Shown piece by piece: positions 6,751 to 36,047 of a stretch of 36,260 bases of DNA. Source of the stretch: an uncultured Ignavibacteriales bacterium (GTDB lineage Bacteria > Bacteroidota > Ignavibacteria > Ignavibacteriales > Ignavibacteriaceae); assembly GCA_903929035.1 (NCBI GenBank), contig CAIYTF010000168.1, positions 1 through 36,260 of the forward strand, written 5' to 3'. Under the pieces are notes generated by a model. That model searched no databases. It was not told the origin of the DNA and worked only from the letters and a program-made list of their open reading frames with translations. Made by a program: the position numbers and the translations under genes. Numbering within the stretch: the first letter of the stretch is position 1; each line of letters begins with the position of its first letter.

Positions 6751-7986
6751 ATGCACGAAGAAAAAATTAGTATAAAAGAGTTATTTAATCTTACGGTCAT
6801 TGTTTCGGCACTTGGTTATTTTGTTGACATTTATGACCTAATTCTTTTCGGCATTGTTCGTATTCCGAGTCTAAAAGCAATAGGTGTGAATGGGGCAGAC
6901 TTGGTTACTGTTGGTGTGTTTCTGCTCAATATGCAAATGGCGGGAATGCTCATTGGCGGAATATTCTGGGGAATACTTGGTGACAAAAAAGGTAGATTAT
7001 CGGTGCTTTTTGGGTCTATTCTAATATACTCTATCGCGAATTTTGCCAACGCGTTCGTGCACACTACAGAACAGTATGCCGCGCTTCGCTTTATCGCTGG
7101 GTTTGGTCTTGCCGGCGAACTCGGGGCAGCCATTACATTAGTCAGTGAAGTGATGCGTAAGGAAACACGCGGGTATGGCGCGGCTATTGTTGCATCAATC
7201 GGTGTCAGCGGGGCAATATTCGCCGCGGTTATCGGCGAATACTTTGACTGGACTATTGCATATATTATTGGCGGAATTATCGGATTCCTTCTCCTTATTC
7301 TTCGAATTAAAATGTCTGAATCCGGAATGTTTCACTCTGTTAAACAAACGGAAACTAAACGCGGCGATTTTTTGGCTCTCTTCACTTCATTCAAACGGCT
7401 GAAAAGATATTTCAACAGTATCGCGATTGGTTTCCCGATATGGTTTGTAGTAGGTGTACTCATAACTTTCTCACCCGAGTTTGCAAAAGAATTAGGCTAT
7501 ACAGAAGCTATTATTGCAGGCAGAGCAATAATGTTCACATATACAGGATTGATATTCGGCGATTTCATCAGCGGTTTCGTGAGTCAGATTCTGCGCAGCC
7601 GCAAAAAAGTTGTGCTGATCTTCATTATTGCTACAACTGCATTAGTTGTTGTTTATACAATTTTTCCCGGCAAATCAGCATTCTATTTTTATACATTGTG
7701 CGTGCTTCTTGGCTTTAGCATTGGTTATTGGGCGGTATTCACAACTATTGCATCGGAACAGTTTGGCACAAACCTTCGGGCTACCGTCACGACAACGGTT
7801 CCCAACTTTGTACGCGGGGCAGTAGTTCCAATTACGCTCGGCTTCACATTTTTCAGAGGAATCTTTCATTCAATGACGAGTGCCGCGCTTGCTGTCGGCA
7901 TTATTGTTCTTGTCATTTCTCTTTTCGCTCTATTTCATCTGAAAGAAACATTTGGTGATGACCTTAATTTTCTTGAAGATATTTAA
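6751..7986 (+). CDS. Major facilitator superfamily transporter (MHS/sugar-porter type)
   Basis: A 411-residue membrane protein with about 12 hydrophobic segments, starting at the ATG at 6751. The frame continues upstream to a TTG at 6691, but that extra stretch is low-complexity and unlikely to be translated. The TM2-TM3 loop carries the MFS signature GILGDKKGRL (residues 74-83). TM1 has the acidic pattern GYFVDIYDL typical of metabolite:H+ symporters, and a second arginine-rich loop follows TM4 (RKETRGYG). The substrate cannot be read from sequence; organic acids or sugars are the usual cargo of this branch. The gene stands alone, divergent from pdxB and convergent with the cytochrome operon. 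Confidence 0.87.
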   Translation: MHEEKISIKELFNLTVIVSALGYFVDIYDLILFGIVRIPSLKAIGVNGADLVTVGVFLLNMQMAGMLIGGIFWGILGDKKGRLSVLFGSILIYSIANFANAFVHTTEQYAALRFIAGFGLAGELGAAITLVSEVMRKETRGYGAAIVASIGVSGAIFAAVIGEYFDWTIAYIIGGIIGFLLLILRIKMSESGMFHSVKQTETKRGDFLALFTSFKRLKRYFNSIAIGFPIWFVVGVLITFSPEFAKELGYTEAIIAGRAIMFTYTGLIFGDFISGFVSQILRSRKKVVLIFIIATTALVVVYTIFPGKSAFYFYTLCVLLGFSIGYWAVFTTIASEQFGTNLRATVTTTVPNFVRGAVVPITLGFTFFRGIFHSMTSAALAVGIIVLVISLFALFHLKETFGDDLNFLEDI

Positions 7987-7987
7987 A

Positions 7988-8002
7988 AGATGCTTTGCAT
8001 CT
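7988..8002 (-). terminator. Weak terminator-like hairpin at the end of the cytochrome operon
   Basis: AGATGC-AAA-GCATCT followed by TTTTAAAT, read on the minus strand, lies 56 bp beyond the stop of the last cytochrome gene. The stem has only six base pairs, so it would be a weak intrinsic terminator. On the plus strand it lies just after the MFS stop codon but without a T-run. Confidence 0.4.
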
Positions 8003-8058
8003 CAGGGAGATCATCAAATGGGAAAAAATAGGATATATTTTTGCTATAAATTTTACCC

Positions 8059-9573
8059 CTACTCTTTCACCGCGACCACCTTTTTCACCCCGTGGCAATC
8101 CGTGCATTTTTGAGAAAGCACCGAATTTGAGAGTTCACCCGGATGCGTGAACGGCATTCCTGATACGTTGCTTTGCTTGCCGATTCGTGCTGTTTCCTGT
8201 GCTATAATCGTATGGCAGCTTTCACATTTATTGCCGATTACATTGCCGCTTGCTGATTTATGCTTGCCATCGTGGCACCGGAAACATCCGTCATAATATA
8301 GATGCCCGATATTATTCGGATAGTTTTTCCAGTTTGCTTTCATTTCAGGGAAATAGTTTCGTGAATATAACCGTTGAACCGCGGCAATGGCTGAATCAAT
8401 CACAACTGATTTTTGCTTTGAAATGCCCGGATAATTTCCGGCATAAAAAGTCCGTATGGTGTTGGTGATTTCGTTTGCAGCTTCTGCTTTATCTCTATAA
8501 TCTTTTTCTAAAGCATCCACTGCCACCGTCTTTATATAAGGAAGCGATGCATCTATCGCGCCGGTTGATATGGCGTGGTTTACTTCCATATCAGGTTCGC
8601 GATAAATATGCGATGGGCGGTTATGGCAATCGATACAATCCATACGGCGCAGTTCTTCTTTTGATTTCTCGATCACGCTCTTATCAACATCAGTTGCATA
8701 AAATACTTCTTCGGTGCCGTCTTTTTTCACCCATTTGATATATGGAATTGATTGTCTCCTTTTATCGGAAAACCCGTAGAATACCGCGTTAGCCTCGTTA
8801 ACGTGCCAATGGATACCGCTTGCCACTCCCCCGTCATTTTTGCTTTGCCCGATTTTCACGAGCATTGTCATAGATTCGCGCGAGTTATTCTCATCAGGGA
8901 GGTAGTAATTTCGCTCAAGTTTTTTTTCGGTATAGAAATGTTTGGGCCAGTGGCACTGCTCGCAGGTTTGCTGGGCAGGGCGCAAGTTTTCAATCGGCGT
9001 GGGAATCGGACGTGAATATTTATTAAACATAACGGAATACATTTGATACGAACCCGATATTTTTGCCCGCACGAACCAGTCCGCTCCTGAACCTATATGA
9101 CATTTAACACACCCCACCCGCGAGTGCGGTGAATCTTTATAAGCAGTGTATTCAGGGGTCATAACTGAATGACAAATAGTACCGCAAAACTCATCTGAAT
9201 CCGTATATTCATAAGCCTTAAAACTGCCGAATGCCGATCCAACCAGCAAACCTATTGTTCCTGCCGTGAAAACAATTATTGTTCTTCTCTTTACCGGATC
9301 GTTAAAATCTATTACGGGGAGATGTTTACCTCTGACGATACCTGTCTTTTTTCTAATGTAATCTCTATATGCGCCATAGCCGATAAGTACAAGTCCGCTT
9401 ATCATTATCGATGGCAGAATAATGAATGCAATAATTCCCATATAGGGCTTTGGCTCTTTTGTAAAAAACTCGAGGATAATCAAAAAAGCAATCAGCCCCG
9501 CGCAAATTGCAGCAATTACAGAACCTGCTACTGATATCGGATTATAGAACTCATCAGGAAATTTTCTTTTCAT
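8059..9573 (-). CDS. Seven-haem NapC/NrfH-family inner-membrane cytochrome, ImcH-like
   Basis: A 504-residue protein with three hydrophobic segments (residues ~14-36, 45-67, 98-117) followed by a periplasmic cytochrome domain. Haem sites start at Cys130, 155, 204, 313, 430, 450 and 490. The first is CGTICH (three residues between the cysteines) and the other six are CXXCH. The block FCGTICHSVMTPEYTAY and the motif VGCVKCHIGSGADWFV are the NapC/NirT quinol-oxidising module. The seven haems and three TM segments resemble ImcH of Geobacter, which passes electrons from menaquinol to periplasmic cytochromes; that match is from memory of the family. No NrfA or NapA partner is present, which argues against a nitrite or nitrate role. 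It is the last gene of the operon, 27 bp after the cytochrome b gene. Confidence 0.88.
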   Translation of the reverse strand: MKRKFPDEFYNPISVAGSVIAAICAGLIAFLIILEFFTKEPKPYMGIIAFIILPSIMISGLVLIGYGAYRDYIRKKTGIVRGKHLPVIDFNDPVKRRTIIVFTAGTIGLLVGSAFGSFKAYEYTDSDEFCGTICHSVMTPEYTAYKDSPHSRVGCVKCHIGSGADWFVRAKISGSYQMYSVMFNKYSRPIPTPIENLRPAQQTCEQCHWPKHFYTEKKLERNYYLPDENNSRESMTMLVKIGQSKNDGGVASGIHWHVNEANAVFYGFSDKRRQSIPYIKWVKKDGTEEVFYATDVDKSVIEKSKEELRRMDCIDCHNRPSHIYREPDMEVNHAISTGAIDASLPYIKTVAVDALEKDYRDKAEAANEITNTIRTFYAGNYPGISKQKSVVIDSAIAAVQRLYSRNYFPEMKANWKNYPNNIGHLYYDGCFRCHDGKHKSASGNVIGNKCESCHTIIAQETARIGKQSNVSGMPFTHPGELSNSVLSQKCTDCHGVKKVVAVKE

Positions 9574-12433: not shown

Positions 12434-12647
12434 TTTTAAGCCTTGTGTAAATTTTTAAAGGTGCGTCTTATATGCCGCAAAATTTCTGAATCACAGTTTA
12501 AAAGTTAGGAAATTGTTTTTCTATTAAAGAAACCCTTTACATCTTCTAAATCTTACCTTTGCGATCTTCGCGTCTTCGCGTGAAAAATTGTTTATGTTAT
12601 TTCTTAACGAGTCCTAACGCGCTTCAAGAATCCGGTTAATCCGTGAT
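12434..12647. repeat. Spacer carrying the second 81-bp repeat and a GAATCACGG repeat
   Basis: This 214-bp gap inside the cytochrome operon holds the reverse copy of the 81-bp repeat at 12536-12616. Next to it is GAATCACGGATTAACCGGATT (minus strand, about 12633-12654), which begins inside the stop codon of the upstream 13-haem gene and recurs near 27650-27678. It is the only long gap in the operon, so it could contain a secondary promoter or a processing site. No promoter motif was recognised. Confidence 0.75.
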
Positions 12648-14804
12648 TCAGACAGTTTTGTTTTCTTCAGAAGCTGACTGCTCTTTTATTCTTTCCAGCT
12701 CAAGCGGGTGCTCATCTGCCATCTCTTCTTCGGTGATTGTGCCCTTTATCCAAGCTAAGTTCATCGGGTAAATGTCAGGATTAAATAAAACAAAATAAAA
12801 ATGCCAAACAAGGACAGCGAGGAATGCTAACCAAGCTTCGTAATAGTGTATTGTCCTGGCAACATCCCATCCTAATTTGGTGAAAAGACCAATAAAAGTA
12901 TTATCAAACCACAAAATAAATCCCGTTGCTGTCATTACAATTGTGCCCCATATCAAAGCCCAATATTCGGATTTTTCAATATAGCTGAATCGGTCGAGTT
13001 TTGGTTTTTCGGAACTCAACCCAATGTTATACTTTAAAACGCCAATTGCATCGGTAATATCTTTCAGCCTTGGCAGCAGATCAAAGAATAATTGCCGACC
13101 GCTCTGACTGAAAGCAAGATAGTATATATGGAACAAACTTGTGGTTACCAATATAACAGCCGCGATACGGTGGAGGATGCTTCTTAATTCAAAAGCATAA
13201 GGACTAATGTCTCTTATTGTACGCACCCACCAAGAATCTGGGAAATGCAGCATAAATCCGGTAAGTATCAACGTGAAGAAACCGACTGTAAGCAAAATAT
13301 GCTGTATTCTTTCGTTGAGTGTCATACGAAGGTATAGCGAGTGACCGTGATGTTCATAAGGGATAAGACCGCGCTGCCTCATCTTTTTGATTTTAGCTTT
13401 TTTGATAAAATCAATGAAATTATGGATAAACATACTGCCGATAGTAACACCGATAATAATCATATAGATGCTGACAATCCAATATAACAGCGGCTCTTCT
13501 TTTTCTTTTAACGTGATATGAACACTGCCAACGGTAAAATTCCTGTTGGCACCCGGATGACATTTGCCGCAGGTCTTTACCAAGTTCCGTTTATTTACTG
13601 TTGAAGTTGTATCTGCTGAAGCCTTAATATTGTGAATTCCGTGACAACTGCCGCAATTCGCTATGGTTACAGAACCACCTTTCAATGCCAATCCGTGGTA
13701 TGAGTCGGAAAATGTCTTGAAACGGTTTGCCTGCATTCCATACTTATCAGTGAGCGTCATAGAACTGTGGCACTTGGAACAAATTTGTTCTGCTACATTC
13801 CTGAATGCTACTGCCGCGTTCGGGTCATTATGCTTTAATATGGTATGTTCGCCGTGGCAATCGGTGCAGACAGGTGCATCATTGCTTCCTTTGGCGACTG
13901 CCAATCCGTGAACACTTGCCGCGTATTGCCGTGCTATTTCGGTATGACATTTTCCGCAGGTTGATGGAATATTCTTTTTAGCAATAGAAGCACTTTTGTC
14001 TTCGGTGCCTTGAATTGTATGAACTGTATGGCAGTCAACACAGCCGGCGGCAGCACCTTTTCCTGCACGCAATGCTTTCCCGTGCACGCTTTGGTCGTAG
14101 GACTGAATAAAACTTTTTTTGTAAGAAAACTTTTCACGCACGGCAGGGTCATCAAGATGGCAGGCAAGGCACAGTTTTTCTTGAGCTAATTTTGCTTTTA
14201 CCGTATCACCGCCAAAACCTTTAGTGGTAATTTGTTGGTTGTGGCAGGTTAAACAGGAAGGAGCTTCTTTTTCTCCTGATTGACCGGCTCTAAAATGCGA
14301 TGATTGAGCAAATTGATCTGCCTGCTCTTTATGACAATTCGCACAAATCGGGGCAGCTTTGGAAGTGCTGCTAAGTTTAATCTGCTTTGCATTGTGCGTG
14401 CCGTGACAGCCTTTACAATCTGTGCCTGCAGAAATTTCGCCGCCTTTCATCATTCGCGGGTGGAACTGGTGTTTTACAGGTGCGTTTTTGTGGCAGCTTT
14501 GGCAGTTAATGGGCTGGATATTTTCTTTGTGGGGAACATTGCTAATATCAAATCCGGTATGACAGGAAGCGCATTGCAATTTTTTATGAACAGAAACTGC
14601 TAAAACTTTATCGTCAACAAAGAGTTTTACTGTTTTTCCTTTCCGATCCAAAGAAAGGGTTTCATCACTATGGCAGCTCAGGCAATCTTCATTTGTTTGC
14701 GCTTTGTAAGAGGGAGCGATAGTTAAAGAAATTACAAAAAATAAGAAAGAACATTTCCTTAACCAGCCGGTAAGCCCGGCACAAAATTTAAAGTGAACTG
14801 CCAT
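12648..14804 (-). CDS. 13-haem cytochrome c fused to membrane cytochrome b, CbcL-like
   Basis: A 718-residue fusion. Residues 1-35 form an export signal. Thirteen CXXCH motifs lie between Cys41 and Cys412 in the periplasmic part. One hydrophobic segment (~438-462) then leads into a b-type cytochrome domain (~495-680) with His502, His545, His559, His653 and His668 as probable haem ligands. The same architecture, multihaem c plus HydC/FdnI-like b in one chain, is known from CbcL of Geobacter, a menaquinol oxidase used with low-potential acceptors; CbcL as recalled has nine c haems, so this one is larger. It is preceded by the small cytochrome c gene (27 bp) and followed by the 19-haem gene after a repeat-bearing spacer. 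The direction of electron flow is inferred. Confidence 0.88.
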   Translation of the reverse strand: MAVHFKFCAGLTGWLRKCSFLFFVISLTIAPSYKAQTNEDCLSCHSDETLSLDRKGKTVKLFVDDKVLAVSVHKKLQCASCHTGFDISNVPHKENIQPINCQSCHKNAPVKHQFHPRMMKGGEISAGTDCKGCHGTHNAKQIKLSSTSKAAPICANCHKEQADQFAQSSHFRAGQSGEKEAPSCLTCHNQQITTKGFGGDTVKAKLAQEKLCLACHLDDPAVREKFSYKKSFIQSYDQSVHGKALRAGKGAAAGCVDCHTVHTIQGTEDKSASIAKKNIPSTCGKCHTEIARQYAASVHGLAVAKGSNDAPVCTDCHGEHTILKHNDPNAAVAFRNVAEQICSKCHSSMTLTDKYGMQANRFKTFSDSYHGLALKGGSVTIANCGSCHGIHNIKASADTTSTVNKRNLVKTCGKCHPGANRNFTVGSVHITLKEKEEPLLYWIVSIYMIIIGVTIGSMFIHNFIDFIKKAKIKKMRQRGLIPYEHHGHSLYLRMTLNERIQHILLTVGFFTLILTGFMLHFPDSWWVRTIRDISPYAFELRSILHRIAAVILVTTSLFHIYYLAFSQSGRQLFFDLLPRLKDITDAIGVLKYNIGLSSEKPKLDRFSYIEKSEYWALIWGTIVMTATGFILWFDNTFIGLFTKLGWDVARTIHYYEAWLAFLAVLVWHFYFVLFNPDIYPMNLAWIKGTITEEEMADEHPLELERIKEQSASEENKTV

Positions 14805-14831: not shown

Positions 14832-15179
14832 TTATTTTTTTGCTGACTTTAAGGTGCCAAGCCAATCTGCCAGCTTCTTCAAGTCTTCATCAGGTCCTTT
14901 GAAAGAGACAGGATGAGCTTTCCCTTCCATTTTTTCTTGTTTTACTAAATATTTTTTTAAAAAGTCAGCGTTTTTCACAGAACCGATAGTTGAAAGATCG
15001 GGAGCCGGTTTTTTCGACTTAGTTTCGAGTTTAGCTGACTGAACCGCGTGGCAGGTTCCGCATTTTGAAGCAACAAACACTTTTTTACCTGGAGATTCTT
15101 CACCAGCACTTGCAAATGCAGCTCCGTAAAGAGCGATAATAAAAAACAGGAATAAAATATAAGCGAGTACATTTTTCAT
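14832..15179 (-). CDS. Small monohaem cytochrome c
   Basis: A 115-residue exported protein with a signal peptide (residues ~1-24, ending FASA) and a single haem site CGTCHAV near residue 40. A Met in the KMEGKAHPV segment near residue 84 is a plausible sixth ligand. It ends in the KKLADWLGTLK helix common in class I cytochromes c. It is probably a soluble periplasmic shuttle for the larger membrane-bound cytochromes. It is the first gene after the sigma-54-type promoter, with the putative -12 element about 44 bp from its ATG and an AAAGGA Shine-Dalgarno-like stretch just upstream. Confidence 0.9.
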   Translation of the reverse strand: MKNVLAYILFLFFIIALYGAAFASAGEESPGKKVFVASKCGTCHAVQSAKLETKSKKPAPDLSTIGSVKNADFLKKYLVKQEKMEGKAHPVSFKGPDEDLKKLADWLGTLKSAKK

Positions 15180-15223
15180 TTGATTTTTCCTTTAAAGAAA
15201 TATTGTCATAGGCTTGCTAAAGG

Positions 15224-15238
15224 GCAAATATAGTGCCA
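15224..15238 (-). promoter_or_regulatory. Sigma-54 (-24/-12) promoter of the cytochrome operon
   Basis: Read on the minus strand the sequence is TGGCAC-TATAT-TTGC, followed by CC. This matches the RpoN consensus TGGCAC-N5-TTGC exactly, with the GG and GC dinucleotides at the required spacing. The site lies ~45 bp before the ATG of the first cytochrome gene, in a 324-bp intergenic region. An NtrC-type activator with the sigma-54 contact motif GAFTGA is encoded at 34168-35514. No obvious paired enhancer site was found. Confidence 0.75.
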
Positions 15239-15503
15239 AAACAAAAAACTTACTTAATTGTAAGCATTCACGTTAAATAGGCTTTATTCTCTCAATCTTG
15301 GGAAACCAAAGCAGAGGCATTTTCACTTTTTAGAATTGCCTGAATCAGAAACGCTAAAGAGGCTATTTTGACTTAAAATTTAATTCGCTATATTACACTT
15401 GTAGGTGGGGGAATAAGATGGTTATTTATTATGGCAGTGCATTTTATGTTCCCGTTTTATAAAATGGTGCCTATTCGATTTAAAAATAAAATTTATTTCT
15501 CAT
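15239..15503. other. Upstream region of the cytochrome operon
   Basis: This non-coding stretch lies between the sigma-54 site and the stop codon of the MNT gene. It is the expected place for enhancer-binding sites of an NtrC-family activator. No clear long inverted repeat and no gene was seen. Confidence 0.3.
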
Positions 15504-31965: not shown

Positions 31966-32230
31966 GTAACTACTCAGCCTCCTGAAATCAAGAAAATATA
32001 TGGTATGGATATTATGTCCCAAAGGGACTAAATTTGAATAACCGTGAGTGACAACTCACGGGAGAATGATAAAAAGCATCTATGTCCCCGAAGGGGGCAA
32101 ATTCACGCCGCATTAGTTCGCCCCCTTCGGGGACATTATTTGTTTGGGCTTACTTTTCCGTGAGTTAGCACTCACGGTTATTCAAATTTAGTCCCTTTGG
32201 GACAAATTCAAGAACAGGCTGAGTAGTTAC
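31966..32230 (+). repeat. Nested-hairpin element, copy 2 (complete)
   Basis: A 265-bp element with perfect 15-bp terminal inverted repeats, GTAACTACTCAGCCT at the left and its complement at the right. Six hairpins lie inside in mirror order: GTCCCAAAGGGAC (32016-32028), CCGTGAGT-N4-ACTCACGG (32042-32061), GTCCCCGAAGGGGGC (32084-32098), its complement (32120-32134), a second CCGTGAGT hairpin (32158-32177) and GTCCCTTTGGGAC (32191-32203). It has no open reading frame. This is the best-preserved copy; its left half matches copy 3 almost exactly. Confidence 0.95.
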
Positions 32231-32578: not shown

Positions 32579-34171
32579 ATGAGGAAATACTTGAATCGTG
32601 TCAGCATTAAATTAGTATTTGTTATTACAGGGGTATTATTTATCACGCTGCTTATTTATACTGTAGTAACTGCAAATCGTACTCGTGAGCAAATTGTCAG
32701 TTCATCAGCAACCAACGCGTATGCTATGAGCGATATTATTAAAAAATCTGCCCGTTACAGTATGCTCTTGAACCGAAGTGAAGATGTAAAAGAGATAGTC
32801 AAAACTGTTGGCGGGGAACAAAACGTGAAGAAAATACGCATCTATAATAAGTTCGGTGCAATTTCGTATTCCACGGACAGCACCGAAATCGGGAGGAAAA
32901 TCGCTCTGTCCTCTGACGAGTGCAAGACCTGCCACGTTGAAAATCAAATGACCGCGGAAACGCCGCGCGACAAAATGATTCGAATCTTCAGAAATGAGAA
33001 TAATGAAAAAGTACTTGGACTAATTAACCCTATCCGAAATGAAAAGGATTGTTCGGTCGGCGGCTGCCACGATGCGGATAAAAAATTGCTGGGAGTTTTG
33101 GATGTAGTGCTATCAATGGAATCAATTGACCGGAGCGTTGCTGGCAACATCGAGACTGTTGTTATAAGTTCCGTGCTGATAATGATTATTATCGCGTTAA
33201 GTTCAGGATTTGCAATTGCAGTAATAGTGAACCGCCCGATGCGGCGCATAGATTCAGGAATGCGGGAAATAGCAAACGGCAATCTTAATTATCGGATTGA
33301 TGTTCATACAAATGACGATCTCGGCTCAATGGCGCAGCGGTTTAATGATATGTCACACCGGCTGAATGAGGCACACCGCGAAATTAAACAATGGAATGAA
33401 ACACTCAACAAAAAAGTTGATGACAAAAATGAAGAACTGAAAAAAATATACGAGCAAATAGTGCAGGTTGAAAAGCTCGCCTCATTAGGAAAGCTTTCCG
33501 CGACGGTCGCGCACGAACTGAATAACCCGCTCGAAGGTATATTAACATACAGTAAATTAATATCTAAAATTCTGACTAAAGACAACACCTCCGGAAAGCA
33601 CGACAAGATTTTACAATACCTTGAGCTTATCTCGAGTGAATCTTCGCGCTGCGGGAGAATTGTAAAAGACTTGCTTATTTTTTCGCGGTCTTCCGATACT
33701 CAATTCAGTCAGCACGATTTGCGCGATGTAGTTGACAAAAACATACTAATGATTAAACATCATTTAGAAATGCATAACATAATCCTTTCAAAGTTTTATG
33801 ACAAAACCCCGATTACTATTTATTGCGATGCGCAGCGCATTGAACAGGCAGTTCTCACGGTGCTAATAAATGCCATTGAATCTATGCAGGATAGCTGTAA
33901 ACTTACAATTGTTGCCTCTAAAAATGACGGTATGGGTACACTGCTTGTAAAGGATGAAGGAACAGGAATTGCCCCTGATGTTTTGCCGCACATTTTTGAA
34001 CCTTTCTTCAGCACGAAGCAAGATAAAAAAGGCACCGGATTGGGACTTTCAGTCGCCTATGGAATTATTTCGCAGCACAAAGGCTCCATCAATGTTATGG
34101 AAACTTCAGAAAAAGGAACAGTATTTAAAATTCAATTGCCGCTATTTTCAAAGGAGACTTTACCCGTATGA
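32579..34171 (+). CDS. Sensor histidine kinase with c-haem motifs in its extracytoplasmic domain
   Basis: A 530-residue membrane kinase. TM1 (~12-30) and TM2 (~194-217) flank a periplasmic sensor of about 160 residues. This sensor holds CKTCH (Cys115-His119) and CSVGGCH (Cys158-His164, four residues between the cysteines), both suited to covalent haem. A HAMP domain (~215-267), a coiled coil (~268-297), HisKA with AHELNNP (His312), an N-box at Asn431, DEGTGIA and GTGLGL (485-490) follow. It is the NtrB-like class that pairs with NtrC regulators, and the regulator gene overlaps its stop by 4 bp. It is likely to sense redox state or a haem ligand such as NO, CO or oxygen. The kinase call is firm; haem binding is inferred. 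Confidence 0.92.
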   Translation: MRKYLNRVSIKLVFVITGVLFITLLIYTVVTANRTREQIVSSSATNAYAMSDIIKKSARYSMLLNRSEDVKEIVKTVGGEQNVKKIRIYNKFGAISYSTDSTEIGRKIALSSDECKTCHVENQMTAETPRDKMIRIFRNENNEKVLGLINPIRNEKDCSVGGCHDADKKLLGVLDVVLSMESIDRSVAGNIETVVISSVLIMIIIALSSGFAIAVIVNRPMRRIDSGMREIANGNLNYRIDVHTNDDLGSMAQRFNDMSHRLNEAHREIKQWNETLNKKVDDKNEELKKIYEQIVQVEKLASLGKLSATVAHELNNPLEGILTYSKLISKILTKDNTSGKHDKILQYLELISSESSRCGRIVKDLLIFSRSSDTQFSQHDLRDVVDKNILMIKHHLEMHNIILSKFYDKTPITIYCDAQRIEQAVLTVLINAIESMQDSCKLTIVASKNDGMGTLLVKDEGTGIAPDVLPHIFEPFFSTKQDKKGTGLGLSVAYGIISQHKGSINVMETSEKGTVFKIQLPLFSKETLPV

Positions 34172-35514
34172 ACACTAAAGGTTCGATATTAATTGTTGAT
34201 GATGAAGAAATTGTCAGGCAGTCTTTGTTTGATTGGTTTGAAGAGGATAATTACGAAACAGTAGCGGCTGAGACCGCGGAAATAGCACTAAAGAAATACA
34301 GGGAAAAGAAATTCGACCTCATTCTTGCAGATATGAAAATGCCCGGGATGAGCGGATTGCAGCTGCTGGAAAAAATTAAGGAAATTGACGGTGACGCGTT
34401 CGTGATAATCATTACCGCGTTCGCCTCTGTTTCAACTGCTATTCAGGCATTGAAAGACGGTGCTTATGACTACATAACCAAACCCGTTGACCCCGATGAA
34501 CTTACACATCTTGTTGAAAAGGCATTCAGGCAAATACATCTGAAGAAAGAGAACTTTCAGCTAAAATCAAGTTACGATGAAATGATTCGTCCCGATAACC
34601 TTGTCGGTGACAGCGAGCAGATGCAAAAAGTGTTTTCACTCATTCAAACAGTCGCGCCGGCTAACACCACTGTAATGATTCGCGGTGAAAGCGGAACCGG
34701 CAAGGAATTAGTCGCGCGCGCGATTCACATTAACAGCGCGAGAAAATATTTTCCGATTGTAACAGTAAACTGCGGCGCACTTGCAGAATCAATTTTAGAA
34801 AGCGAATTATTCGGTCACGAAAAAGGGGCATTCACCGGCGCGCATTACAAACGCAAAGGAAAATTTGAGCTTGCCGATGGCGGTACTATCTTTCTTGACG
34901 AAATCGGCTCTGTCACGCCCAAAACGCAAGTTGAGCTATTGCGCGTTCTGGATACAAAACAATTTACAAGGCTTGGAGGAAACGATGTTATTAACAGCGA
35001 TTTCCGAATTATCACGGCTACAAATGAATCGTTAGAGGCAATGGTGAAAGACGGGCGTTTCAGGGAAGACCTTTACTACCGGTTAAACGTGTTCACGATA
35101 TTTATTCCGCCGCTCCGCGAACGTGCAGAAGATATTCCCGCCCTCGCGTTTTATTTCTTGAAGAAATTTTCAACCGCTATGAACAAGCGTATTCACGACA
35201 TAGACTGCGAAGCAATTGACTTTATGACCCGGTACTCCTGGCCCGGCAACATTCGCGAATTAGAAAATGCCATCGAGCGGGCAGTGGTTATTTGTAAAGA
35301 ATCGTCTATAGGTATTCAGGATTTGCCTATCACTCGGGACAGATTTACAGTATCCGGCGCGGAGGATAAATCGCTGGCTGCCCTTGAAAAAAGATACATT
35401 GCAGCAATGCTATCGGAAAATTCTTGGAATATTTCAAAAACCGCGGAACAATTGGCAATTGACAGGGTTACATTGTATAATAAAATCAACAAATACAATC
35501 TGCAAAAGCCCTGA
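34168..35514 (+). CDS. NtrC-family sigma-54-dependent response regulator
   Basis: A 448-residue three-domain regulator. The receiver (1-120) has the acidic pair Asp11/Asp12, phosphorylation site Asp55 (ILADMKMPG) and switch residues Thr83 and Lys105. The AAA+ domain (145-385) has Walker A GESGTGKE (173-180), the sigma-54 contact loop GAFTGA (220-225), Walker B TIFLDEIG (240-247) and the arginine-finger region FREDLYYRLNV. The Fis-type helix-turn-helix (405-445) has NISKTAEQLAIDRVTLYNKI. All functional motifs are intact, so it should open sigma-54 promoters when phosphorylated by the upstream kinase. Its start overlaps the kinase stop (ATGA). The near-perfect sigma-54 site at 15224-15238 is a candidate target. 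Confidence 0.95.
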   Translation: MNTKGSILIVDDEEIVRQSLFDWFEEDNYETVAAETAEIALKKYREKKFDLILADMKMPGMSGLQLLEKIKEIDGDAFVIIITAFASVSTAIQALKDGAYDYITKPVDPDELTHLVEKAFRQIHLKKENFQLKSSYDEMIRPDNLVGDSEQMQKVFSLIQTVAPANTTVMIRGESGTGKELVARAIHINSARKYFPIVTVNCGALAESILESELFGHEKGAFTGAHYKRKGKFELADGGTIFLDEIGSVTPKTQVELLRVLDTKQFTRLGGNDVINSDFRIITATNESLEAMVKDGRFREDLYYRLNVFTIFIPPLRERAEDIPALAFYFLKKFSTAMNKRIHDIDCEAIDFMTRYSWPGNIRELENAIERAVVICKESSIGIQDLPITRDRFTVSGAEDKSLAALEKRYIAAMLSENSWNISKTAEQLAIDRVTLYNKINKYNLQKP

Positions 35515-36047
35515 TGACCTCGATGGTTTTTATCGCGCCCCTGCAGCTTTCCAATATAGATATTCTGCCGGATATTCAACAACATATTGTTAACCGCCTG
35601 CAGTGTGATACGCGATATATTGACCTGCCGTTAGATGTTGAGTCAGTAAAATCACCGGAACGAAATCAGTATTACTCAACAAAGCTGATAGCACAGGCTT
35701 TGAAACTGACCAATGAATATGAAGGGACAGTGCTGCTGCTTGTTGATGTGGACATATACATACCAATATTTACATTCCTGTTTGGCGAGGCGCAGCTGCG
35801 CGGAAAACATTCTATTGTTTCGCTATGCCGGCTGCACGAAGAATTTTACACCGGCAAAAGCGACAACAAACTGCTCTTCCGGCGCGCGATGAAAGAAATC
35901 TATCACGAGCTCGGGCACAACTTCGGATTATTGCACTGCAACAATTGGGAATGTGTTATGCACTCTTCATCGGCAATAGAAGAAGTGGATTTGAAAGGGG
36001 ACTTTTATTGCAAGCAATGCAGAGCAGCAGCCGGAATCGCGGATTAA
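35514..36047 (+). CDS. amzA: Archaemetzincin-family zinc metallopeptidase
   Basis: A 177-residue protein without a signal peptide, so probably cytoplasmic. It has the archaemetzincin signature HELGHNFGLLHC (His131, Glu132, His135, Gly138, His141, Cys142). The second structural zinc site follows: Cys147 in CVMHSS and the CKQC pair (Cys166, Cys169). The extended metzincin helix, Met-turn region (VMH) and length are typical of the archaeal/bacterial family. Substrates of this family are poorly known; aminopeptidase-like activity has been reported for human members. The ATG overlaps the regulator stop codon by one base (TGATG), so it belongs to the kinase/regulator operon. Confidence 0.92.
   Translation: MTSMVFIAPLQLSNIDILPDIQQHIVNRLQCDTRYIDLPLDVESVKSPERNQYYSTKLIAQALKLTNEYEGTVLLLVDVDIYIPIFTFLFGEAQLRGKHSIVSLCRLHEEFYTGKSDNKLLFRRAMKEIYHELGHNFGLLHCNNWECVMHSSSAIEEVDLKGDFYCKQCRAAAGIAD

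What the first reader, a model, noticed from the sequence alone, without database searches (positions are those of the whole stretch)
15224..15238. Sigma-54 promoter in front of a multihaem respiratory operon, with a candidate haem-sensing NtrB/NtrC pair in the same window
TGGCAC-TATAT-TTGC matches the RpoN consensus exactly and lies ~45 bp before the first cytochrome gene. The window also encodes an NtrC-type activator with an intact GAFTGA loop and a kinase whose sensor domain has two c-haem-like sites. This suggests a circuit in which the redox or ligand state of a periplasmic haem controls the electron-transfer operon. The promoter and motifs are seen directly; the link between them is inference.
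Basis: partly seen in the sequence, partly recalled or inferred. Interest (0 to 1): 0.72.

Follow-up and report, generated by a model that had tools for sequence, protein, structure and literature searches.

The report
Sigma-54 switch for electron-export operon
A promoter for the nitrogen-type sigma factor, with two upstream enhancer sites, really does sit in front of a respiratory cytochrome operon and is conserved across many related bacteria, but the evidence says it is driven by a different regulator than the haem-bearing pair in the same window.

Summary
The promoter observation holds. TGGCAC-N5-TTGC lies at 15238-15224 (-), 44 nt before a monohaem gene that heads a CbcL/ImcH-type multihaem operon. 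The genome has one RpoN. The site is conserved: 27 of 29 same-family operon loci carry [TC]GGYAY-N5-TTG (null mean 0.43, maximum 5), and 41 of 64 further species do (null 1.2). The -12 C is not conserved. I also found two enhancer palindromes (TTCTCA-N4-TGAGAA) about 66 and 97 nt upstream, in register across relatives (24/27 versus 0.77 expected).

The proposed regulator is not supported. All but one of the activator genes found beside orthologous operons are orthologous to a different NtrC-type protein (contig C40, paired with a soluble PAS kinase); that clade has support 1.0 and excludes the window's regulator. Eight operon-bearing relatives have the promoter but lack the window-type regulator. 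In relatives the window-type dihaem-kinase/activator pair sits beside an NrfD/ferredoxin module whose sigma-54 promoter carries a different palindrome (TTCAACA-N7-TGTTGAA). G000 has one perfect copy of it, at that module.

The C40-type enhancer pair recurs before an unlinked porin-cytochrome-like cluster. Likely picture: one sigma-54 activator coordinates inner- and outer-membrane parts of an electron-export chain in Ignavibacteria. No step has been tested experimentally.

The parts
15224..15238 (-). sigma-54 -24/-12 promoter element TGGCACTATATTTGC
   Evidence: conserved in 27/29 family loci and 41/64 further species
15289..15304 (-). proximal enhancer palindrome TTCCCAAGATTGAGAG (10/12 to TTCTCA-N4-TGAGAA), starting 66 nt 5' of TGG
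15320..15335 (-). distal enhancer palindrome TTCTAAAAAGTGAAAA (10/12), starting 97 nt 5' of TGG
14832..15179 (-). monohaem cytochrome c, first gene of the operon
12648..14804 (-). 13-haem cytochrome fused to a b-type (cytochrome b561) membrane domain, CbcL-type architecture
   Evidence: PMC6295460
10445..12433 (-). 19-haem cytochrome with a C-terminal hydrophobic segment
9601..10440 (-). b-type cytochrome
8059..9573 (-). NapC-type cytochrome (six CxxCH and one CxxxCH motif), ImcH-like
   Evidence: PMC6295460
32579..34171 (+). histidine kinase with a periplasmic dihaem-c-motif sensor domain (CX2CH + CX4CH); probably not the regulator of this operon
34168..35514 (+). NtrC-type activator with GAFTGA, partner of the haem kinase; probably targets the GcvH-like/NrfD module, whose remnant in this genome is on contig C153
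35514..36047 (+). archaemetzincin-like protein, conserved third gene of the haem kinase/activator unit

Best explanation
The cytochrome operon (15179 to 8059) is transcribed by RpoN-RNA polymerase from a -24/-12 promoter at 15238-15224 (predicted start near 15212). It is activated from two phased palindromic enhancer sites (15304-15289 and 15335-15320). The activator is most likely the NtrC-type response regulator on contig C40 (G000:C40:6499-7854), phosphorylated by its adjacent soluble PAS-domain kinase (7876-9330). The same enhancer pair precedes a tetrahaem / outer-membrane-like protein / 14-haem / 9-haem cluster on contig C2. One activator would therefore switch on both the inner-membrane quinol-oxidising cytochromes and an outer-membrane porin-cytochrome conduit. 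The window's dihaem kinase/activator pair belongs to a separate circuit, aimed at the GcvH-like/ferredoxin/NrfD module. Shown here: sequence conservation of promoter and enhancers, orthology and gene neighbourhood. Inferred: binding, phosphorylation, direction of control and signal.
For: Site conserved in 27/29 loci (null mean 0.43, maximum 5 of 1000; spacing variants 0-1; reverse strand 0), and in 41/64 non-overlapping species (null 1.2). Two in-register palindromes: at least one copy with 10/12 in 24/27 regions (null 0.77), again in 19/64 (null 0). The C40-type EBP lies directly upstream of the operon in 7 family genomes (63-66% identity versus 43-47% to the window regulator), and every NtrC-type EBP found upstream of the operon in the second set matches C40 best. 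Tree: operon-adjacent EBPs plus C40 form a clade with support 1.0, the haem-linked EBPs a separate clade at 0.95, with different recognition helices. Haem-linked module: its own promoters and palindrome TTCAACA-N7-TGTTGAA (TGTTGAA in 12/13 versus 1.2 expected), one perfect copy in G000 at C153. Second C40-type enhancer pair, 32 bp apart, at the C2 tetrahaem cluster, with homologues in L266 and L289.
Against: In G000 the C40 pair is not next to the operon. G021 keeps promoter and enhancers but has no C40 orthologue (best 43%). G008 and G033 have the promoter without enhancers, although G008 has the C40 orthologue. One G011 operon copy has a different EBP (C157-type) downstream. In G001 the C40-type pair lies about 1 kb from the NrfD module. 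The window's two enhancer copies are imperfect (10/12). The C2 -24 element is TGGAAT, a weak match. The haem pair lies 17 kb from the operon here and about 19 and 10 kb away in G008 and G057, a loose physical link.
Confidence: 0.76

Rival explanations
1. One reading: the window's dihaem kinase and its NtrC-type partner activate the operon through this promoter in response to the periplasmic haem state.
For: Both lie on the same contig 17 kb apart; the kinase sensor is a plausible redox sensor. In family f2 a paralogous haem kinase is next to the homologous operon, but with response regulators that lack GAFTGA. From my own knowledge, not found in the library: the Geobacter sigma-54 regulator BccR acts on bc-type cytochromes and is encoded next to the dihaem kinase GSU0599.
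Against: EBPs beside orthologous operons are C40-type. The promoter persists in 8 genomes without the window-type regulator. The pair's own neighbourhood has another promoter and another palindrome, and no close copy of that palindrome lies by the operon promoter.
Confidence: 0.1
2. The site is a Bacteroidota-type primary-sigma -7 element (TAnnTTTG, here TATATTTG) that happens to look like sigma-54.
For: TATATTTG fits that consensus (recalled, not looked up), and the TTTG end is the part conserved instead of TTGC.
Against: GG with exact 10-nt spacing to the final G is invariant in 27 loci, while the TA of TAnnTTTG is not conserved. Phased distal palindromes are typical of EBP-activated promoters.
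Confidence: 0.06
3. The operon is driven by sigma-54 with the conserved enhancers, but the activator is another of the ten EBPs in the genome, or several act together.
For: Ten EBPs in G000; G021 has the enhancers without a C40 orthologue; in G011 a C157-type EBP is adjacent.
Against: C40-type EBPs are the recurring operon neighbour across many genera.
Confidence: 0.15

Closest known systems
RpoN regulon of Geobacter sulfurreducens (PMC2725144)
   Same: Sigma-54 control of genes for extracellular electron transfer, including cytochromes; consensus TTGGCACGGTTTTTGCT.
   Different: Different phylum; here the -12 C is not conserved in most orthologues, and the operon and enhancer pair belong to this lineage.
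CbcL/MtrH/MtoC and ImcH quinol-oxidising cytochromes (PMC6295460)
   Same: Multihaem domain fused to a b-type membrane domain (13-haem protein) and a NapC-type multihaem protein; homologues already listed in Ignavibacteriae.
   Different: Here both types lie in one operon, together with a 19-haem cytochrome and a separate cytochrome b.
c-haem periplasmic PAS sensors GSU0582/GSU0935 and dihaem-motif proteins GSU0599/GSU0591, Adeh_2011/Adeh_3383 (PMC3831638, PMC8396549)
   Same: One CX4CH and one CX2CH motif in a periplasmic sensor; the CX4CH motif aligns with the CXXCH of 3b42.
   Different: Sequence similarity is low (profile E 0.001); haem attachment and redox behaviour are untested; here the kinase partners an NtrC-type regulator and an archaemetzincin-like protein.
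Porin-cytochrome (Pcc) clusters, including Ignavibacterium album (PMC4245776, PMC7399161)
   Same: The C2 cluster has an outer-membrane-like protein with multihaem cytochromes on either side.
   Different: The 422-aa protein has no Pfam match; assignment as porin rests on gene context; its regulation has not been described in what I read.

Membership tests
sigma-54-dependent promoter | GG at -24 and GC at -12 with fixed spacing | tested here: met
   Exact in the window. Across relatives GG and the G of the -12 GC are invariant, while the C varies (A9 C4 T14).
sigma-54-dependent promoter | RpoN in the genome | tested here: met
   One RpoN, E 2.3e-56, RpoN box intact
sigma-54-dependent promoter | Upstream enhancer sites for an AAA+ activator | tested here: met
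   In-register palindromes in 24/27 loci; sequence only
sigma-54-dependent promoter | Transcription depends on RpoN and starts 11-13 nt downstream | not testable with these tools
   Needs RNA mapping and mutants
NtrC-type two-component activator (window regulator and C40 EBP) | Receiver, AAA+ with GAFTGA, Fis-type helix-turn-helix | tested here: met
Regulator of this operon = window regulator | Co-occurrence or adjacency with orthologous operons | tested here: not met
   Absent from 8 operon-bearing genomes and not found adjacent in any locus examined
c-haem PAS sensor (Mcp40H-20_sensor, GSU0582 type) | Periplasmic PAS-like domain with c-haem motif | tested here: inconclusive
   Pfam PF21563 E 5.5e-5 but 23.9 bits, below its 27-bit cut-off; profile match to 3b42 E 0.0011; motifs invariant in homologues
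c-haem PAS sensor (Mcp40H-20_sensor, GSU0582 type) | Covalent haem and redox or ligand switching | not testable with these tools
   Needs purified protein
CbcL-type cytochrome | N-terminal multihaem region fused to a HydC/FdnI-like b-type membrane domain | tested here: met
   13 CxxCH plus Ni_hydr_CYTB domain

The most novel reading that the evidence does not exclude
Ignavibacteria run a dedicated sigma-54 regulon for extracellular electron transfer in which one PAS-kinase/NtrC-type pair, through a phased double palindrome, co-activates an inner-membrane CbcL/ImcH operon and an unlinked outer-membrane porin-cytochrome cluster, while a second, haem-sensing sigma-54 pair controls a parallel NrfD-type quinone module. 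The two circuits are kept apart by different enhancer sequences and recognition helices.
Probability: 0.5. Interest if true: 0.62.

Novelty: new member of a known kind. Interest (0 to 1): 0.5.

Why it matters
Ignavibacteria are common in electrode biofilms and aquifers and carry many multihaem cytochromes, but I found no description of how these genes are regulated. This gives a specific promoter, operator sequence and regulator pair that can be tested. It also corrects a tempting but probably wrong link between a haem-sensing kinase and the nearest cytochrome operon, and offers the haem kinase a more likely target.

Tried and rejected
Genome-wide consensus counts: not clearly enriched over reversed controls, so counts alone were not used. 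A TTAGCAA element near the promoter was seen in some loci, but its position varies. The small membrane-protein gene downstream of the haem pair in relatives has sigma-54-like sites but not the TTCAACA palindrome, so I did not assign it to the haem regulator. A Bacteroidota -7 element was considered and disfavoured. Sigma-70-type and terminator-like matches in the operon region are at chance level. Structure prediction was not run: fold was not the deciding question.

Full report
Observation. The minus strand carries TGGCACTATATTTGC at 15238-15224, 44 nt before the ATG of a monohaem cytochrome gene. It is the only exact consensus match in the window; 0.045 such matches are expected in a Markov model of the window. 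Consensus matches in the whole genome are not clearly enriched over a reversed-pattern control, so the string by itself is weak evidence. The operon encodes a monohaem cytochrome, a 13-haem cytochrome fused to a b-type membrane domain, a 19-haem cytochrome, a b-type cytochrome and a NapC-type multihaem cytochrome. The second and fifth correspond in architecture to CbcL and ImcH (PMC6295460). A 214-nt gap (12434-12647) lies between the second and third genes, so one transcript is assumed, not shown. The genome has one RpoN with an intact RpoN box and ten sigma-54 activators that align over most of the domain. The closest named relatives are metagenome-assembled or environmental Ignavibacteria and Bacteroidota records.

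Conservation of the promoter. I took the 700 nt upstream of the 13-haem gene in 29 loci (the window and 28 loci of the same family). In 27 of them [TC]GGYAY-N5-TTG occurs on the coding strand; random sequence of the same composition gives 0.43 on average and never more than 5 in 1000 trials. Spacings of 3, 4, 6 or 7 give 0-1 and the reverse strand gives 0. The aligned sites form an island: GG, A, TT and G are fixed (partly by the pattern used to find them) and the flanks are close to background. A second set from named genome records gave 54 of 79 (null 1.4); after removing 15 loci already seen, 41 of 64 (null 1.2).

Enhancers. A search for over-represented words upstream of the conserved site found TGAGAA in 25 of 27 regions against 5.7 expected, as part of the palindrome TTCTCA-N4-TGAGAA. 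In most loci there are two copies, starting about 64-78 and 93-110 nt before the TGG; a copy with at least 10 of 12 matches is found in 24 of 27 regions against 0.77 expected. In the window they are 15304-15289 and 15335-15320. Two sites about 31 bp (three helical turns) apart fit two activator dimers on one face of the helix; this is inference from sequence.

Which activator. In seven family genomes a kinase and an NtrC-type activator lie directly upstream of the operon on the same strand. That activator is 63-66% identical to the G000 protein on contig C40 and 43-47% identical to the window regulator. In the second set, every NtrC-type activator gene found upstream of the operon has C40 as best match. 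In a tree, the operon-adjacent activators plus C40 form a clade with support 1.0 that excludes all other G000 activators, and the haem-linked activators plus the window regulator form another at 0.95; the recognition helices differ (VGLSTLYRKLKEL-like versus IDRVTLYNKINKY). The one exception is a C157-type activator downstream of one G011 copy. The C40 partner kinase has PAS sequence and no obvious membrane segment. The C40 orthologue is present in most operon-bearing genomes; G031, which has only a 48% relative, has also lost the promoter. The window regulator is absent from G004, G005, G012, G016, G017, G029, G030 and G034, all of which keep operon and promoter.

What the haem pair does. Orthologues of the window kinase occur in most relatives, almost always followed by the window-type activator and usually by an archaemetzincin-like protein, and often preceded by a GcvH-like protein, a ferredoxin, an NrfD-type membrane protein and a further conserved protein. 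That module has its own sigma-54-like promoter in most loci examined. Upstream lies a different palindrome, TTCAACA-N7-TGTTGAA: TGTTGAA is found in 12 of 13 regions against 1.2 expected, although only G000 and its congener have it perfect. G000 has exactly one perfect copy (C153:4072-4092), about 100 nt before TGGCACATCGTTTGC and the GcvH-like gene. In G000 the ferredoxin and NrfD genes are missing from that site. The kinase sensor has invariant CX2CH and CX4CH motifs; the second aligns with the haem motif of GSU0582 (3b42; profile E 0.0011), and dihaem-motif sensors are known in Geobacter and Anaeromyxobacter (PMC3831638, PMC8396549). So it is a plausible redox or ligand sensor, but probably for another target.

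A second target for the C40 activator. A scan of G000 for the operon's palindrome found one other intergenic pair with the same geometry (32 bp apart), on contig C2. A -24/-12-like TGGAAT-N5-TTG starts 65 nt from the proximal copy, upstream of a tetrahaem cytochrome, a 422-aa outer-membrane-like protein, a 14-haem and a 9-haem cytochrome. Tetrahaem genes in L266 and L289 also have the site with an enhancer match of 11/12. In sister families these genes lie in one cluster with the 13-haem-type gene. Porin-cytochrome clusters are known in Ignavibacterium (PMC4245776).

Limits. No expression or binding data exist. The C40 pair is not linked to the operon in G000; the assignment rests on synteny in relatives and on operator sharing. 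G021 has the enhancers without a C40 orthologue, and G008 and G033 have the promoter without the enhancers. In G001 the C40-type pair lies near the NrfD module. The haem pair is loosely linked to the operon in three genomes. The signal for the C40 kinase is unknown.

Verdict. Promoter real and conserved (about 0.93). Control by the C40 pair likely (about 0.76 for the whole explanation). Control by the window's haem pair unlikely (about 0.1). This is a new member of a known kind of system, in a phylum for which I found no regulatory description; a term search of a 2025 survey of sigma-54 regulons found neither Ignavibacteria nor cytochromes in its text (PMC12316311).

Noticed in passing
G000:C153:3970-4092 (L209): Sigma-54 consensus site and perfect TTCAACA-N7-TGTTGAA palindrome before a GcvH-like gene and a second module gene; the ferredoxin and NrfD genes found between them in relatives are missing here.
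   Followed up: partly
G000:C58:21296-21309 and G000:C132:3396-3409 (L183, L192): Sigma-54-like sites 57 and 25 nt before genes resembling pyruvate:ferredoxin oxidoreductase and a KorD-type ferredoxin; sigma-54 may control ferredoxin metabolism too.
   Followed up: no
35514-36047: Archaemetzincin-like (Pfam M54) protein conserved as the third gene after the dihaem kinase and activator in most relatives; role unknown.
   Followed up: partly
31970-32230: A roughly 260-bp element with long inverted ends (gtaactactcagcc ... ggctgagtagttac) in the 1.15-kb gap upstream of the haem kinase.
   Followed up: no
L091, L092, L093: In a sister family a paralogous haem-motif kinase (about 630 aa) sits beside the homologous 19-haem/cytochrome b operon, followed by two receiver proteins lacking GAFTGA; a different output for a similar sensor.
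   Followed up: partly
L066:11848-12207 (-): A 119-aa degenerate receiver-like protein lies between the activator and the operon in several relatives.
   Followed up: no
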